DNA of 55,400 nucleotides from the NCBI GenBank assembly GCA_035651995.1, contig DASRER010000033.1, forward strand, positions 1 through 55,400. The letters are read 5' to 3'. Numbering within the stretch: position 1 is the stretch's first letter; the number at the start of each line of letters is the position of its first letter. The notes under the pieces were generated by a model. That model made no database searches. It was not told the origin of the DNA and saw only the letters and a program-made list of their open reading frames with translations. The translations under genes and the position numbers were made by a program. The stretch is from Terriglobales bacterium. GTDB lineage: Bacteria; Acidobacteriota; Terriglobia; Terriglobales; Acidobacteriaceae. Below are positions 24,704-29,204 of this stretch, in pieces.

Positions 24704-27328
24704 ATGCGCGATTCCCGCCACCTCCTCGCCCCCCTGATCCTGCGGTGTTCAGCCTTGTTTGTCCTAACGGCAGTTGCAGTCGCCGCGGACGCCCCAGCAT
24801 CGAAGCCGAAGTCGCCTCCGGATAAACCGCAGAAGCTCATTGCGCCCTACTGGACGCTCGAACCCGGCTGGCATACCTCACTTGAAATCCGCAACAACTA
24901 CGCTGCCCGCCCGCTAACCGTCACGCCCATCCTCCGCACCGCAAGCGGCGAGCAGCTGACGCTCGACGCGATTGACCTCAAACCCAGCGAGGGCCGCCGA
25001 ATTGACCTGGCGCTGGCGACCGTGAAGTATCCGCCCTTGCTCGGCGACCGCGCCTATGGTTCTGTCGTGCTGCAATTCACCTCAGCCATGGCATTCAACG
25101 TGTATGCGGCCACCATGGTGCACATGCCGGGCAAGGCCATCGCCTACCACTTCGACGCCACCGACGAGCTCTCGGGCTTCGGAGCCGGCACATACGAAGG
25201 CATCTGGTGGATGCCGAGCACAACCGCCCACGGGCAGATGATGATTTCCAATACATCCGACCAGCCCGTAAACGCGAACGTAACGTGGTTCGATTCCAAC
25301 GGGGCTACGCAGAGCACGCCGCTTGGCCTGGCAGCCGGCCAATCCCGCCGCCTCGACGTGCGCGACGCCATCACGCGCGGCAACCTCGCCGGCGATCACG
25401 GCGGCCTTCGCATTCAACTCGACGCCAAAGCTGGCTCGGTCTTCCTCGGCCACATCCTGTACGACGAAACCGCCAACTTCGGCGGTACGGTCAAGATGTT
25501 CGAGAAGTACAAATTCCACTCCAAGGCCACGACCAACACCATCCGCGCGCCCATGATTGCGCTCACCGAACCCGACGCGGCGCTGAATTTTCCCGCCGGG
25601 ACCAAGCTCAACCCAACCGTATTCGTTCGGAACACGACGGCAGCCCCGAAGGACGTATCTCTGATGATTCGTTGGTTTGAGGGCGACAAGTCCGCCGCGG
25701 TCACCGTGCCATTAGGGCCGCTGGCAGCCAATGAAACCCGGGCCCTGAGTCTGCGGCAATTGCAAAACGACGGCGTCTTGCCCTCCTCAGCGCACTTCGC
25801 CGCCGTCCACTTCACCTACCAGGGCGACACCGGCGATTTGGTCGCGCTCGCCGCCTCCTACGACGACACTCTCCGCTATGGCGCGCAGTCACCCTTCGGC
25901 GACATGGTTTCCCATATGCTCGTGGGCACCCTCTGGACAGCCGATGTGCTCCACAACAGCATCATTACTGTAGGCAATGCCGGCACGAACCCAGCGGAAG
26001 TGGCGATAACACTGGTTTCGGCGGACGGAACTTTTCGTTACGAGCTTCCACACGCCATGCTGAGCGCTAGCGAGCAGACTTGGGTCAACATCGGCCAGCT
26101 CGTCAACAATCACGTTCCCGACCGCAAGGGCAAGGTGTTCCCCGACGGCACCACCTCCGGTACGTACGAGATCGAAGACGTGAAGAACCTGCCGAACGGC
26201 TATCTTTACGAAGGCAAGCTGGTGATGGACAAGACATACGGCCACGTCGGCTACGGTTGCGCCCAGTGCTGCGGATATAACCAGCCAACCGAAACTGAAG
26301 ATCCTCTCCTCGGCCCTTTGCCAAACGGCAATGACCAAAAAGTTTGGGCCACCAACTGCGTCGGGACACCGAACGATGTCACGCCGTGGACTTACCAATG
26401 GTTCACATACGATGCCAATGTCGCCACAGTGAGCGAGGGCGGCCACGTGATAACCGGTGCCCCGGGCTTCACCATTGTGACCTCATACGCAGACCTCGAA
26501 GCTCCAGGCGGGCACATTTGCCCAATTGAGACGAGGACAACCGATGCACAGATTGTGGTGAATGGCTTCGACCTGAGTCCTGCGCAAAGCATCGTCGACG
26601 GGAACAGTAGTCAGTTCACCATCAGCGTAACCGGTGGAAGCCCAATCGCCTACGCTTGGTCTTTCACAGCCCCCGCCGGGGCTGGCAATAATCCAAACGT
26701 GACCTTTGGCTCGCCTGCGGCGCTCCAGACAGACACCGACGGGCACTGGTTCGCTCTACCCAATACTGCCTGCGGTGCTGGTTACAACGCCCAGTACACC
26801 ATTAATGCGAAGGTCACATTCGATGACAATCAAGAAATAAACAAGAACACCACACTTACTGTATCGATACCTTCAACAGCGGCATTCGTTGACCCCAACG
26901 TTGCGAATATTTCTGGTTCTCCCGATGACGCCCAAGACCCGACTACTCACAAATGGACCATCACAGGCACAGGTACAATGGCTCGCGTAGTGCCCGTATC
27001 GGCCACGTATAACATTCCGGCCACGAGCCAGTTCCGCCACAAGGCCGAGATCCACGAAGGAGTGCACTTGGCAAACTGGATCCAGGGAGCAGGGCACCTC
27101 TTTGGGGACCTGTTCCTCGTTGCCGACCTTTATAACCAAATCAAGGACCTAACAGGGGATACAGAATTTGATTTACTCGACCAAGTTCGCCAGGTGAAGG
27201 TGGCCTACATAAACGATCAGCGCTCGACCGTGCAGGGTCGGTTGTCCCAGGACGAGCAGCAGGCTTACTCCGCCTCCGATCCGGTACCGCCGCAATACAA
27301 GTACCAAGGGAGCTGTGGAGGATTATGA
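24704..27328 (+). CDS. Large secreted beta-rich protein with C-terminal HEGVH motif
   Basis: I do not know this family by name. A signal peptide (about 1-28) precedes four repeating modules of about 100 residues (about 48-150, 165-275, 300-400 and 410-500), each with the pattern 'N, beta strand, G, beta strand, L-x-ai'. Compare TVTPILRTASGEQ, ANVTWFDSNGATQ, LMIRWFEGDKSAA and ITLVSADGTFRYE. A Cys-containing segment (GYGCAQCCGY) and an Ig/PKD-like segment (AYAWSFTAPAGAG) follow. Near the end HEGVH (residues 784-788) has the HExxH spacing of zincin proteases, but no third ligand is certain. The last codons overlap the next gene's start (ATGA). Confidence 0.7.
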   Translation: MRDSRHLLAPLILRCSALFVLTAVAVAADAPASKPKSPPDKPQKLIAPYWTLEPGWHTSLEIRNNYAARPLTVTPILRTASGEQLTLDAIDLKPSEGRRIDLALATVKYPPLLGDRAYGSVVLQFTSAMAFNVYAATMVHMPGKAIAYHFDATDELSGFGAGTYEGIWWMPSTTAHGQMMISNTSDQPVNANVTWFDSNGATQSTPLGLAAGQSRRLDVRDAITRGNLAGDHGGLRIQLDAKAGSVFLGHILYDETANFGGTVKMFEKYKFHSKATTNTIRAPMIALTEPDAALNFPAGTKLNPTVFVRNTTAAPKDVSLMIRWFEGDKSAAVTVPLGPLAANETRALSLRQLQNDGVLPSSAHFAAVHFTYQGDTGDLVALAASYDDTLRYGAQSPFGDMVSHMLVGTLWTADVLHNSIITVGNAGTNPAEVAITLVSADGTFRYELPHAMLSASEQTWVNIGQLVNNHVPDRKGKVFPDGTTSGTYEIEDVKNLPNGYLYEGKLVMDKTYGHVGYGCAQCCGYNQPTETEDPLLGPLPNGNDQKVWATNCVGTPNDVTPWTYQWFTYDANVATVSEGGHVITGAPGFTIVTSYADLEAPGGHICPIETRTTDAQIVVNGFDLSPAQSIVDGNSSQFTISVTGGSPIAYAWSFTAPAGAGNNPNVTFGSPAALQTDTDGHWFALPNTACGAGYNAQYTINAKVTFDDNQEINKNTTLTVSIPSTAAFVDPNVANISGSPDDAQDPTTHKWTITGTGTMARVVPVSATYNIPATSQFRHKAEIHEGVHLANWIQGAGHLFGDLFLVADLYNQIKDLTGDTEFDLLDQVRQVKVAYINDQRSTVQGRLSQDEQQAYSASDPVPPQYKYQGSCGGL

Positions 27329-28074
27329 TTCTCAGCAAACTGTGTCGCCGTGGAGTTCTCGGCATAATGGCTACAGGGTGGCTTTGCGCCGCCCTTGGAC
27401 AACTCGATAGTCCGGCAATAAAGCCAGAGAATGATGTTAGGCAGTTGTACAGCCGAGCGGCGTCATGTCAGGCGGTTGTTATTGGCAAGGCCGTTAAATC
27501 GCGGATTGTGTCTAAACGAATTGCACGGAATGACTTGGCGGCAATGCGTGCTTCAGTCAATAATCCAGTTGACGGTCAGCTGTTTGAAGTGGAGATAGAA
27601 CGGATCGTGTGCCATCAGTCCGACTTGGTGCCTAGGGCCCGAACGTCGTTGCAGAGTTCCCCACTCGAGTCAATCCAGGTTGCGTATATTTTTGTGCCCG
27701 AAGACGAGCCGCATTCTCAAAGTGGGTACCGGCAGGAGTACCTGCTAAAAGGCGAGCGGTATCTTCTTTTCTTAGTAGAGGCACCGAGAGATCTCCAGGT
27801 TAAATGGACCGCTGAGTTGGAGCTCGACCCAGAGTTGCGATATTTTCGTACTCTCGAGTACTCGCGAGGCGCAGTTCCACTCCCAGCACAGGCCGTCAGC
27901 CCAAACTACGCAACGCAGTCGCCGGTCCTTGAAAGGCTCGACAAGCTCTGTTCGGCGACAAAGGCTGCCACAAAGGGCAATCTTGATCCGCTAAAAGCTC
28001 TAAGGAATTCCGATGATAGCGCGCTGAAAGAGGCGGCATCGGAGGCGTTGCAACGGTTTACGGAGAATCCCTAG
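27325..28074 (+). CDS. Secreted protein with NTR/TIMP-like layout, coupled to the HEGVH protein
   Basis: The 249-aa protein has an N-terminal hydrophobic segment (GVLGIMATGWLCAALG) and then an OB-fold-like pattern. This is CQAVVIGKAV as first strand, a long insertion, LFEVEIERIV as second strand, IQVAYIFVPE, and YLLKGERYLLFLVEAP as the closing strand. That order and the GxxYLLFL ending recall the netrin/TIMP-type domain, but the similarity is by eye only. The C-terminus resembles a short HEAT-like helical pair (LKALRNSDDSALKEAA). It starts inside the preceding stop codon (ATGA). GC content is visibly lower than in the dcw genes. Confidence 0.6.
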   Translation: MILSKLCRRGVLGIMATGWLCAALGQLDSPAIKPENDVRQLYSRAASCQAVVIGKAVKSRIVSKRIARNDLAAMRASVNNPVDGQLFEVEIERIVCHQSDLVPRARTSLQSSPLESIQVAYIFVPEDEPHSQSGYRQEYLLKGERYLLFLVEAPRDLQVKWTAELELDPELRYFRTLEYSRGAVPLPAQAVSPNYATQSPVLERLDKLCSATKAATKGNLDPLKALRNSDDSALKEAASEALQRFTENP

Positions 28075-28269: not shown

Positions 28270-28485
28270 CACCTCACCTGTCGTAAAACCCGCGCCGATC
28301 CAGACTTTTATCGTCGTGTTGCTTGCCCAGTATGCGTTCTTGCCGTTTGATTGCTCGGTGGGCGGTGGCGTGAGGTTCGTTTGCGCATGCACGCCGCGGA
28401 GGTGAAACAGCGGCCATAGGGCTGGAATGAATAGCGCTGCTGCAATCGCGGCGTGTGGCAGGAGCGACCCCAGCCAGCGCTTCAT
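28240..28485 (-). pseudogene. 5' fragment of a secreted protein, truncated in the 14-bp repeat
   Basis: The 81 codons encode a signal sequence (ALFIPALWPLFHLRGVHA) and about 45 residues of mature protein containing NTTIKVWIGAGFTTGEVNDI. That segment resembles the N-terminal start of secreted matrixin-like proteases, where such a strand and helix precede a HExxH domain. Translation then enters the triple repeat and stops. No continuation is found downstream in any frame. The start overlaps the stop of the 240-aa gene (ATGA), so it is the second gene of a pair. A short functional peptide is possible but less likely. Confidence 0.6.
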
Positions 28486-29204
28486 TGGCGAGCCCTCTCC
28501 CGTTCGGCTGCAAGCGAGACGGCATCTTGCACTAATTGTAGGAAAGCGGGACGACTCCGAAAGTCTTGTGCAAACTTCCCCGGATGCGTCTTTGCGGGAA
28601 TTGCCCGATCGCCAGAAATGAGAAAACTCTTGTCGGCGAAAGCCTTGAAAGTCCCCGTGTTCGGAATCTGGTACAAGAAAAATAAATATTGCTCGCCGAG
28701 ACGAAAGAGACGAAACTCGGGGTCGATTGCCCGGACCGGGTGGCCGTTGACCGTCGTAACGCCGCCTGCGCGTGCGACCACAATAATATTTCCGGAAAAT
28801 ACTTGGCCGGTAACATCCTTAAGGACTTGCTCGATGCGCACCTCGTAATCGGAAAAAACGAAGGAGTGATCCGCCGTGAGCGCCGAATGACGTTTCAGAG
28901 GCGTCGCCAGGACAACGAGGTCAGCATTCGCGGCTTTCGTGGCGAGCCAACTGCGGACACTTCCATCGGGCATACCCGTCAGGGGCCGGTCACCAACTGT
29001 TCGAGTGACGACGACTAAGTCCTTATTTTGATTTTCCGGCAGGGCAACCTGCCGCTCAAGGGAAGGGCTGCCACCATATTCCATGAAGTGCGTCGAATCG
29101 GCGGCCAGAACTTCCGGAGTGACTTGCGAACGCAAGTCCTGTGCAGGCCCTGGAAGTAGGTTCCCAAACAAGACTAGGAATATAAGTACGAGAACTCGAT
29201 TCAT
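28482..29204 (-). CDS. Secreted protein with NTR/TIMP-like layout (second copy)
   Basis: The 240-aa protein begins with a signal peptide (MNRVLVLIFLVLFGNLLPGPA). The mature part has the same order of elements as the 249-aa protein at 27325: ADLVVLATPL, then VFSDYEVRIEQVLKD, GNIIVVARAGG, and FRLGEQYLFFLYQIP. Both look like variants of an OB-fold domain of netrin/TIMP type, judged by eye. The first 60 residues have no counterpart. It is coupled by ATGA to the truncated secreted gene, mirroring the pair on the other strand but in opposite gene order. GGAGGA lies upstream of the ATG. Confidence 0.65.
   Translation of the reverse strand: MNRVLVLIFLVLFGNLLPGPAQDLRSQVTPEVLAADSTHFMEYGGSPSLERQVALPENQNKDLVVVTRTVGDRPLTGMPDGSVRSWLATKAANADLVVLATPLKRHSALTADHSFVFSDYEVRIEQVLKDVTGQVFSGNIIVVARAGGVTTVNGHPVRAIDPEFRLFRLGEQYLFFLYQIPNTGTFKAFADKSFLISGDRAIPAKTHPGKFAQDFRSRPAFLQLVQDAVSLAAERERARQ

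What the first reader, a model, noticed from the sequence alone, without database searches (positions are those of the whole stretch)
24704..28074. Possible secreted protease-inhibitor pair: HEGVH protein coupled to an NTR/TIMP-like protein
The 874-aa secreted protein has four beta modules and a C-terminal HExxH motif. It is coupled by ATGA to a secreted protein whose strand pattern (CQAVVIGKAV ... LFEVEIERIV ... GERYLLFL) recalls netrin/TIMP domains, which inhibit metalloproteases in animals. If both guesses hold, this is an undescribed bacterial metalloprotease-inhibitor module.
Basis: inference. Interest (0 to 1): 0.6.

Follow-up and report, generated by a model that had tools for sequence, protein, structure and literature searches.

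The report
Bacterial metalloprotease tip with TIMP-fold partner
In a probable acidobacterium, a gene for a secreted protein ending in a likely zinc-protease domain overlaps a gene for a secreted protein whose predicted fold weakly resembles the animal protease inhibitors called TIMPs, and the two sit together in every related locus found, which suggests a bacterial enzyme-inhibitor pair that I found no description of.

Summary
P0001 (24704-27325), a secreted modular protein, has HEGVH at 784-788; P0002 (27325-28071) overlaps it by ATGA. Neither reaches a Pfam or NCBIfam cut-off. The HExxH half of the C-terminus occurs in eight loci found, one a remnant. HExxH and a downstream Glu (E851, ExxA) are invariant in the seven retaining that half, as in gluzincin-type zinc peptidases. 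In 8 of 8 the next gene encodes a P0002 relative; one locus was found from the protease side alone, after the pattern was seen in seven. The tip sits on at least three unrelated N-terminal parts. Tip GC3 is below that of its own N-terminal part in 6 of 6 loci, but also at the 3' end of 3 of 6 tip-less stalk genes, so composition only hints at a moving cassette. One partner's model is weak (pLDDT 49), yet 42 of 47 listed structural matches are TIMP/NTR folds. TIMP's profile and Cys-x-Cys are absent. NTR-like genes also occur beside stalks with other tips, and one partner stands alone. Best reading: a secreted metallopeptidase effector with a cognate NTR-fold inhibitor/immunity protein. Pairing is shown; catalysis, binding and inhibition are inferred.

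The parts
24704..27325 (+). P0001, 874-aa secreted modular protein (stop codon 27326-27328): N-terminal hydrophobic export signal, beta-module stalk, Cys motif, beta region, C-terminal HExxH domain
   Evidence: ORF; relatives of the protein in 24 of 200 family genomes, the window's own included; no Pfam or NCBIfam match over a cut-off and no PDB sequence match
24704..26575 (+). stalk of P0001 (residues 1-624), GC3 0.758
   Evidence: relatives keep it while their C-termini differ; GC3
26576..27325 (+). C-terminal unit, here called the tip (residues 625-874): beta region plus HExxH domain, GC3 0.616
   Evidence: alignments A4 and A6; GC3
27053..27067 (+). HEGVH, residues 784-788; predicted zinc ligands H784 and H788, catalytic E785
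   Evidence: invariant in 7 of 7 domains that keep this half; position
27254..27256 (+). E851 in SQDEQQA (ExxA), candidate third zinc ligand
   Evidence: invariant in 7 of 7; position
27325..28071 (+). P0002, 249-aa secreted partner, NTR/TIMP-like fold proposed, GC3 0.550
   Evidence: ORF; next gene in 8 of 8 loci; fold inferred from a weak model of its L060 relative; GC3
27325..27328 (+). ATGA start/stop overlap (possible translational coupling)
   Evidence: sequence
28485..29204 (-). P0003, 240-aa secreted protein with an NTR-like strand pattern, convergent with P0002; possible distant paralogue
   Evidence: E 0.035 to 0.1 with four of six partner profiles, 1.7 with one and not listed with one

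Best explanation
P0001 is an exported, modular surface or extracellular protein whose C-terminal tip is a minimal gluzincin-type zinc metallopeptidase (HExxH ... ExxA). P0002 is its cognate, co-exported, NTR/TIMP-fold partner, probably translated with it through ATGA. It binds the tip in the envelope and keeps the enzyme inactive until the stalk protein has left the cell, or protects the cell against the tip displayed by its kin, as in an effector-immunity pair. Tip and partner are found together on different stalks. Shown: gene pairing, conservation of the motif residues, the same tip on unrelated N-terminal parts, and NTR-like matches of one weak model. Inferred: zinc binding, proteolysis, binding of the pair, inhibition, joint transfer of tip and partner, and any target in rivals or the environment.
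For: Partner next to the tip, same strand, in 8 of 8 loci. The eighth, L089, came from a protease-only search; its neighbour scored E 4.2e-21 with a partner profile that did not contain it. HExxH and E851 are invariant in 7 of 7. The linkage follows the tip, not the stalk: window, L042 and L057 share the stalk (window vs L042 1.5e-36, window vs L057 2.8e-6, L042 vs L057 2e-26), while the N-terminal parts of L060 (PKD), L066 (IPT/TIG) and L065 show no significant similarity to it. Partners diverge more (12-34% identity) than tips (29-40%) over six pairs; PMC6899460 says the same of T6SS immunity proteins (passages). Partners persist without a working protease: L067 has only a remnant and G835/L073 none. 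Partner fold: Foldseek ranks 1 and 2 are TIMP-2; 42 of 47 VIA rows are TIMP, agrin NtA, C3/C4/C5, PCOLCE or meteorin NTR domains. Weak support: tip GC3 below that of its N-terminal part in 6 of 6 loci, partner in 5 of 6.
Against: The partner model is weak (pLDDT 49.3, pTM 0.47; best Foldseek E 0.043, best VIA Z 4.7) and is of the L060 partner, not of P0002. The protease model failed. There is no TIMP Cys-x-Cys and no Pfam TIMP match over the cut-off in 141 genomes. NTR-like/HEAT genes also follow stalks with other tips (L045, L047), and one partner stands without a protease (L073), so the partner type is not reserved for proteases. The GC3 control is mixed: tip-less stalk genes also fall at their 3' end in 3 of 6 cases, and the neighbour P0003 is as low (0.567). 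No known toxin or toxin-trafficking domain was recognised. Several tip genes are damaged or incomplete: L042 frameshifted, L089 without the beta half in frame, L067 a remnant.
Confidence: 0.43

Rival explanations
1. The partner is a non-inhibitory companion: an NTR-fold binding module that anchors, matures or enhances the protease (as PCOLCE enhances a metalloprotease in animals, recalled), or guides it to a substrate.
For: NTR domains among the matches include proteins that are not protease inhibitors (C3/C5, agrin, PCOLCE; roles recalled). The L060 partner has a C-terminal hydrophobic segment and a sub-threshold HEAT match (E 0.0059). TIMP's inhibitory Cys-x-Cys is absent.
Against: Partners persist where the protease is a remnant or absent (L067; L073), which fits immunity better than a companion; partners diverge faster than tips.
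Confidence: 0.25
2. General envelope biology: these bacteria make secreted stalk proteins with exchangeable tips, some beside a small secreted NTR-like or HEAT-repeat protein; the protease tip is one case and the partner serves the stalk system.
For: NTR-like plus HEAT genes downstream of non-protease stalks in L045 (second gene down) and L047 (next gene), a HEAT-only gene in L053, an NTR/HEAT array in L073.
Against: The partner is next to the tip in 8 of 8 loci, including L060, L065 and L066, whose N-terminal parts are not this stalk. Only 2 of 10 non-protease stalk loci inspected have an NTR-like gene downstream, and these score 0.0013 (L045) or above 1 (L047) with the partner profile A5.
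Confidence: 0.23
3. The HExxH domain is a degenerate or non-proteolytic metal-binding domain and the pairing has another meaning.
For: No known peptidase profile matches over a cut-off; the model does not confirm a site.
Against: Both His, the Glu between them and the downstream Glu are invariant in 7 of 7 at 29-40% pairwise identity among the six full-length tips, the expected pattern for a catalytic site.
Confidence: 0.09

Closest known systems
VgrG2b C-terminal domain / PA0261 (Tpe-Tpi metallopeptidase effector-immunity pairs), PMC6899460 (passages read)
   Same: C-terminal HExxH metallopeptidase; the small extracytoplasmic partner gene lies next to it throughout; partners poorly conserved and variously anchored
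   Different: No VgrG or other T6SS part recognised here; Sec-type export signal and stalk; partner NTR-like; no killing shown
Polymorphic toxin systems with metallopeptidase tips (Tox-MPTase1-5), PMC3482391 (passages read)
   Same: One tip on different N-terminal parts, different tips on one stalk, partner gene next door; an Imm-HEAT family of immunity proteins is listed there
   Different: No Tox-MPTase match and no RHS, PAAR, VgrG or other trafficking domain over a Pfam cut-off; the table passages shown give no immunity partner for Tox-MPTase1-5, and the held part of the text has no 'netrin'
Animal TIMPs / NTR-domain proteins
   Same: Weak but dominant structural matches of the partner model; partner of a likely metallopeptidase
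   Different: No Pfam TIMP match, no Cys-x-Cys, bacterial
Serralysin-type proteases and their periplasmic inhibitor Inh/AprI (recalled, not tested directly)
   Same: Secreted zinc protease with a neighbouring exported inhibitor
   Different: Different protease and inhibitor families as far as recalled; no Inh profile among the Pfam matches

Membership tests
Gluzincin-type zinc metallopeptidase | HExxH motif | tested here: met
   Invariant in 7 of 7 domains that keep this half
Gluzincin-type zinc metallopeptidase | Downstream Glu as third zinc ligand | tested here: inconclusive
   E851 invariant in 7 of 7; geometry not testable, model pLDDT 39.5
Gluzincin-type zinc metallopeptidase | Peptidase activity | not testable with these tools
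   No assay
NTR-fold superfamily (partner) | NTR OB-like barrel | tested here: inconclusive
   42 of 47 VIA rows are NTR/TIMP domains, best Z 4.7; Foldseek ranks 1-2 are TIMP-2, best E 0.043, TM 0.20-0.26; model is of the L060 relative, pLDDT 49.3
TIMP (Pfam PF00965) | Match to the TIMP profile | tested here: not met
   None of the 7 partners scanned; 0 of 141 genomes over the cut-off, no match at E 0.1 in the window genome
TIMP (Pfam PF00965) | Mature N-terminal Cys-x-Cys that chelates the enzyme's zinc (feature recalled) | tested here: not met
   No Cys-x-Cys anywhere in 9 of 9 partner sequences (Cys positions)
Polymorphic toxin / effector-immunity system | Same tip on different N-terminal parts and different tips on one stalk | tested here: met
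Polymorphic toxin / effector-immunity system | Partner gene immediately downstream of the tip | tested here: met
   8 of 8 loci found
Polymorphic toxin / effector-immunity system | Recognised toxin or trafficking domain | tested here: not met
   None among matches over a cut-off in P0001, P0004 and the L060, L065 and L066 proteins or the six tips
Polymorphic toxin / effector-immunity system | Toxicity neutralised by the partner | not testable with these tools
   No assay
Tpe-Tpi (VgrG2b) effector-immunity pairs | Delivery on a T6SS spike (VgrG or similar part) | tested here: not met
   No VgrG/PAAR/Hcp match in P0001

The most novel reading that the evidence does not exclude
Bacteria have their own TIMP-fold inhibitors: an NTR-barrel protein that blocks a metallopeptidase tip encoded next to it, by a mechanism without TIMP's N-terminal Cys-x-Cys, spread as a tip-plus-inhibitor cassette.
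Probability: 0.4. Interest if true: 0.78.

Novelty: new variant of a known kind. Interest (0 to 1): 0.6.

Why it matters
In the papers I could search, TIMP/NTR inhibition of metalloproteases is described only for animals. A bacterial NTR-fold partner genetically tied to a metallopeptidase would show that this fold was paired with zinc proteases in bacteria too, give a small testable enzyme-inhibitor pair, and suggest a role for one branch of the secreted NTR-like/HEAT proteins of these bacteria.

Tried and rejected
Family searches: no match over a curated cut-off for P0001, P0002 or P0003 in Pfam or NCBIfam, nothing meaningful in PHROGs (two matches at E 0.08-0.1) and nothing in PADLOC for the five proteins tried. 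Members of the two alignments gave only weak Pfam matches. Among relatives, NCBIfam and Pfam recognise an anchor-type repeat/IPT-TIG domain in L066, a PKD domain in L060 and HEAT repeats in L045, L047, L053 and L073. PDB sequences: none for P0001 and P0002; weak rows with the alignments (a designed repeat protein, mite allergens, a Photorhabdus protein, a ribosomal protein) taken as chance. Plasmids and viral contigs with the tip: no relative. TIMP profile: sub-threshold fragments in 10 of 141 genomes, none over the cut-off.

Structure: the tip model (3 rows, pLDDT 39.5) gave phage-tail and other matches at Z 3.9 or less that I discard. The partner model's matches in the viral library are noise. 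The 42 NTR rows repeat about eleven proteins (agrin, TIMP-1/2/3, C3, C4, C5, cobra venom factor, PCOLCE1, meteorin, meteorin-like); that the complement ranges are their NTR domains is recalled.

Dropped or qualified before counting: G581 (E 3.9e-4) matches only the beta part, in a PKD-like repeat protein whose fetched part shows no HExxH. L042 and L059 are the same contig, counted once. L067 keeps only the last ~50 residues of the tip and counts in the 8-of-8 pairing but not in the motif count. L089's frame holds the HExxH half (profile positions 123-246) but not the beta half, and it runs into an overlapping upstream frame, so that gene may be truncated; it counts in both. L074 is cut by a contig edge.

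Weak points of the homology: the L057 partner scored only 0.014 in its leave-one-out search, behind an NTR-like/HEAT gene at 0.0042; a profile of the four closest partners alone finds L060 at 0.13 and neither L065 nor L057 within E 10. A Mantel test on six pairs gave r 0.48, reached by 23 of 720 permutations; suggestive only.

Composition: I first took the GC3 drop as strong evidence for a cassette. The control run afterwards shows a drop over the last 250 codons in 3 of 6 tip-less stalk frames too, a rise in the other 3, and no drop in three other window genes, so I lowered this line to a hint and the main odds from 0.45 to 0.43.

Papers: one search found none; one unrelated paper; six, two and six (five listed), none about bacterial NTR proteins as far as titles and abstract starts show; (passages of PMC10755359) treats metazoan TIMPs, with no 'bacteri' in its text. 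Searches (15 of 32 listed; two papers) gave the polymorphic-toxin and T6SS literature. Only PMC3482391, PMC6899460 and PMC10755359 were opened, and only passages were seen. Most subscription journals are not held.
Full report
What is there. The window lies in a 3.66-Mb, 48-contig assembly. One genome of the same family (G197) holds a contig of the same length and sequence as JAICYU010000046.1, titled Acidobacteriales bacterium, so the organism is taken to be an acidobacterium. P0001 (24704-27325, 874 aa) begins with a hydrophobic export signal and ends with an HEGVH-containing region. P0002 (27325-28071, 249 aa) also begins with a hydrophobic segment and overlaps P0001 by ATGA. Neither has a Pfam or NCBIfam match over a cut-off or a PDB sequence match.

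Stalk and tip are separate. Relatives of P0001 occur in 24 of 200 family genomes, the window's own included. Of the 12 loci fetched, only L042 has an ORF matching the tip region; ten others whose C-termini were printed end differently and L049 is cut by its contig. Searches with the tip: 3 of 396 phylum genomes at E <= 0.001 (window, G604, and G581, which matches only the beta part and is dropped); 4 of 349 class genomes (window, G793, G848 and the remnant in G903); 1 of 11 (G604 itself); 2 of 101 (G793, G903 again); 2 of 150 (G848 again, and the new G984). A scan of genome contigs gave L059 (the same contig as L042) and L060, a MAG titled HyVt-354 whose phylum I could not establish. Total: eight distinct loci, namely window, L042/L059, L057 (G604), L060, L065 (G793), L066 (G848), L089 (G984) and the remnant L067 (G903). 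Occurrence is rare and patchy. L042's gene is split by a frameshift, and in L089 only the HExxH half is in frame.

The tip looks like a zinc peptidase. In the seven that keep the HExxH half, 16 residues are invariant: P764, S775, Q776, F777, K780, H784, E785, H788, G795, T820, E851, A854, S858, P863, Y865 and Y867. HExxH followed 63 residues later by ExxA is the pattern of gluzincins (recalled; the link to that clan is by motif only). The AlphaFold model of the tip, with three sequences, is not usable (pLDDT 39.5, pTM 0.25), although it does place HExxH and E851 on two separate helices. Zinc geometry is untested.

The partner always follows. The next gene downstream on the same strand encodes a relative of P0002 in 8 of 8 loci: window (4-nt overlap), L042, L057 (25-nt gap), L060 (26-nt gap), L065, L066 and the remnant locus L067, and L089. 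L089 is a real test: it was found with the tip profile only after the pattern had been seen in seven loci, and its neighbour then scored E 4.2e-21 with a partner profile made without it. Leave-one-out profiles recover the L060 partner at 9.4e-6, L065 at 3.6e-4 and L057 at 0.014 among 1168 ORFs. The first two are convincing; the last is weak, behind an NTR-like/HEAT gene at 0.0042. A Cys pair, C96 and C209 of P0002, is present together in 5 of 9 partner sequences and absent together in 4 of 9, never single, which suggests a disulfide and supports the alignment.

The partner's fold. I modelled the N-terminal part of the L060 partner with P0003, P0002 and the L059 partner as further rows (alignment A13). 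Confidence is low (pLDDT 49.3, pTM 0.47). Even so, Foldseek's first two PDB matches of 238 are TIMP-2 (E 0.043 and 0.17, TM 0.20-0.26), and 42 of the 47 rows listed by VIA-align are NTR-fold domains: agrin NtA (best, Z 4.7, rmsd 4.0 over 97 residues), TIMP-1/2/3, C3/C4/C5, PCOLCE1 and meteorins, about eleven distinct proteins. The other five rows are TFIIA, two Sec12 entries, DDB1 and a phycobilisome chain. No single Z proves a fold; that almost all rows are one fold is the evidence. VIA is a second look at Foldseek's own list, not an independent search. TIMP membership is not met: no profile match and no Cys-x-Cys.

Does tip plus partner move as a cassette? The window, L042 and L057 share one stalk (E 1.5e-36 window-L042, 2.8e-6 window-L057, 2e-26 L042-L057); the N-terminal parts of L060, L065 and L066 show no significant similarity to it, and L060 has a PKD and L066 an IPT/TIG domain there. 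So one tip, with its partner, sits on unrelated N-terminal parts. In L060 the gene upstream has a similar PKD domain (by eye) but a coiled-coil C-terminus. GC3 of the tip is below that of the N-terminal part of its gene in 6 of 6 loci and GC3 of the partner in 5 of 6 (L042 is the exception); in the window the values are 0.758, 0.616 and 0.550, against 0.72-0.92 in seven other window genes, but P0003 is low too, 0.567. A control weakens this line: in tip-less stalk frames the last 250 codons are lower in 3 of 6 and higher in 3 of 6. Pairwise identity over six pairs is 29-40% between tips and 12-34% between partners. Exchangeable tips with fast-diverging neighbours are how effector-immunity pairs behave; PMC6899460 (passages) reports invariable neighbourhood and poor conservation of the immunity protein for one metallopeptidase family.

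Against exclusivity. A partner with no tip lies in G835 (L073), where one search finds no tip in the genome; beside it are a secreted NTR-like/HEAT gene and a HEAT gene. NTR-like/HEAT genes follow stalks with other tips in L045 (second gene down) and L047 (next gene), and a HEAT-only gene does in L053. Of ten non-protease stalk loci inspected, two have such an NTR-like gene; with profile A5 these score 0.0013 (L045) and above 1 (L047), so calling L047 NTR-like rests on the eye. In class samples of 349 genomes drawn by the same rule, the tip was found in 4 and the partner in 5. Orphan partners fit an immunity gene kept after loss of the effector, but also a partner with a wider role.

Mechanism. 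I commit to a secreted metallopeptidase effector with a cognate NTR-fold inhibitor or immunity protein (0.43). Steps shown: the pair, the conserved motif residues, the same tip on different N-terminal parts. Steps inferred: activity, complex, inhibition, joint transfer, and target. It would work like a TIMP-MMP or Tpe-Tpi pair, but it is filed under neither.

Noticed in passing
window 28485-29204 (-): P0003, a second secreted protein with an NTR-like strand pattern, convergent with P0002, also with low GC3 (0.567); E 0.035-0.1 with four of six partner profiles, 1.7 with one, not listed with one.
   Followed up: partly
L045:1150-2379 (-), L047:5213-6286 (+), L073:3306-4439 (+): Secreted proteins with an N-terminal NTR-like pattern (by eye) followed by HEAT repeats, two of them downstream of P0001-type stalks with non-HExxH tips: possibly a large unannotated family.
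   Followed up: partly
L066:6154-6786 (-), L089:5095-5673 (-): Related secreted ~200-aa genes (22.7% identity, E 6.6e-9) upstream of the protease gene in both loci, overlapping its frame; no Pfam match for the L066 one. Possibly a third member in these two loci.
   Followed up: partly
L060:1-936 (+): Upstream neighbour with a similar PKD domain but a coiled-coil C-terminus, as if a tip had been swapped after duplication.
   Followed up: no
L042:4762-7561, L044, L048, L053: Several stalk-family genes are broken by frameshifts or stops, suggesting frequent decay or assembly errors.
   Followed up: no
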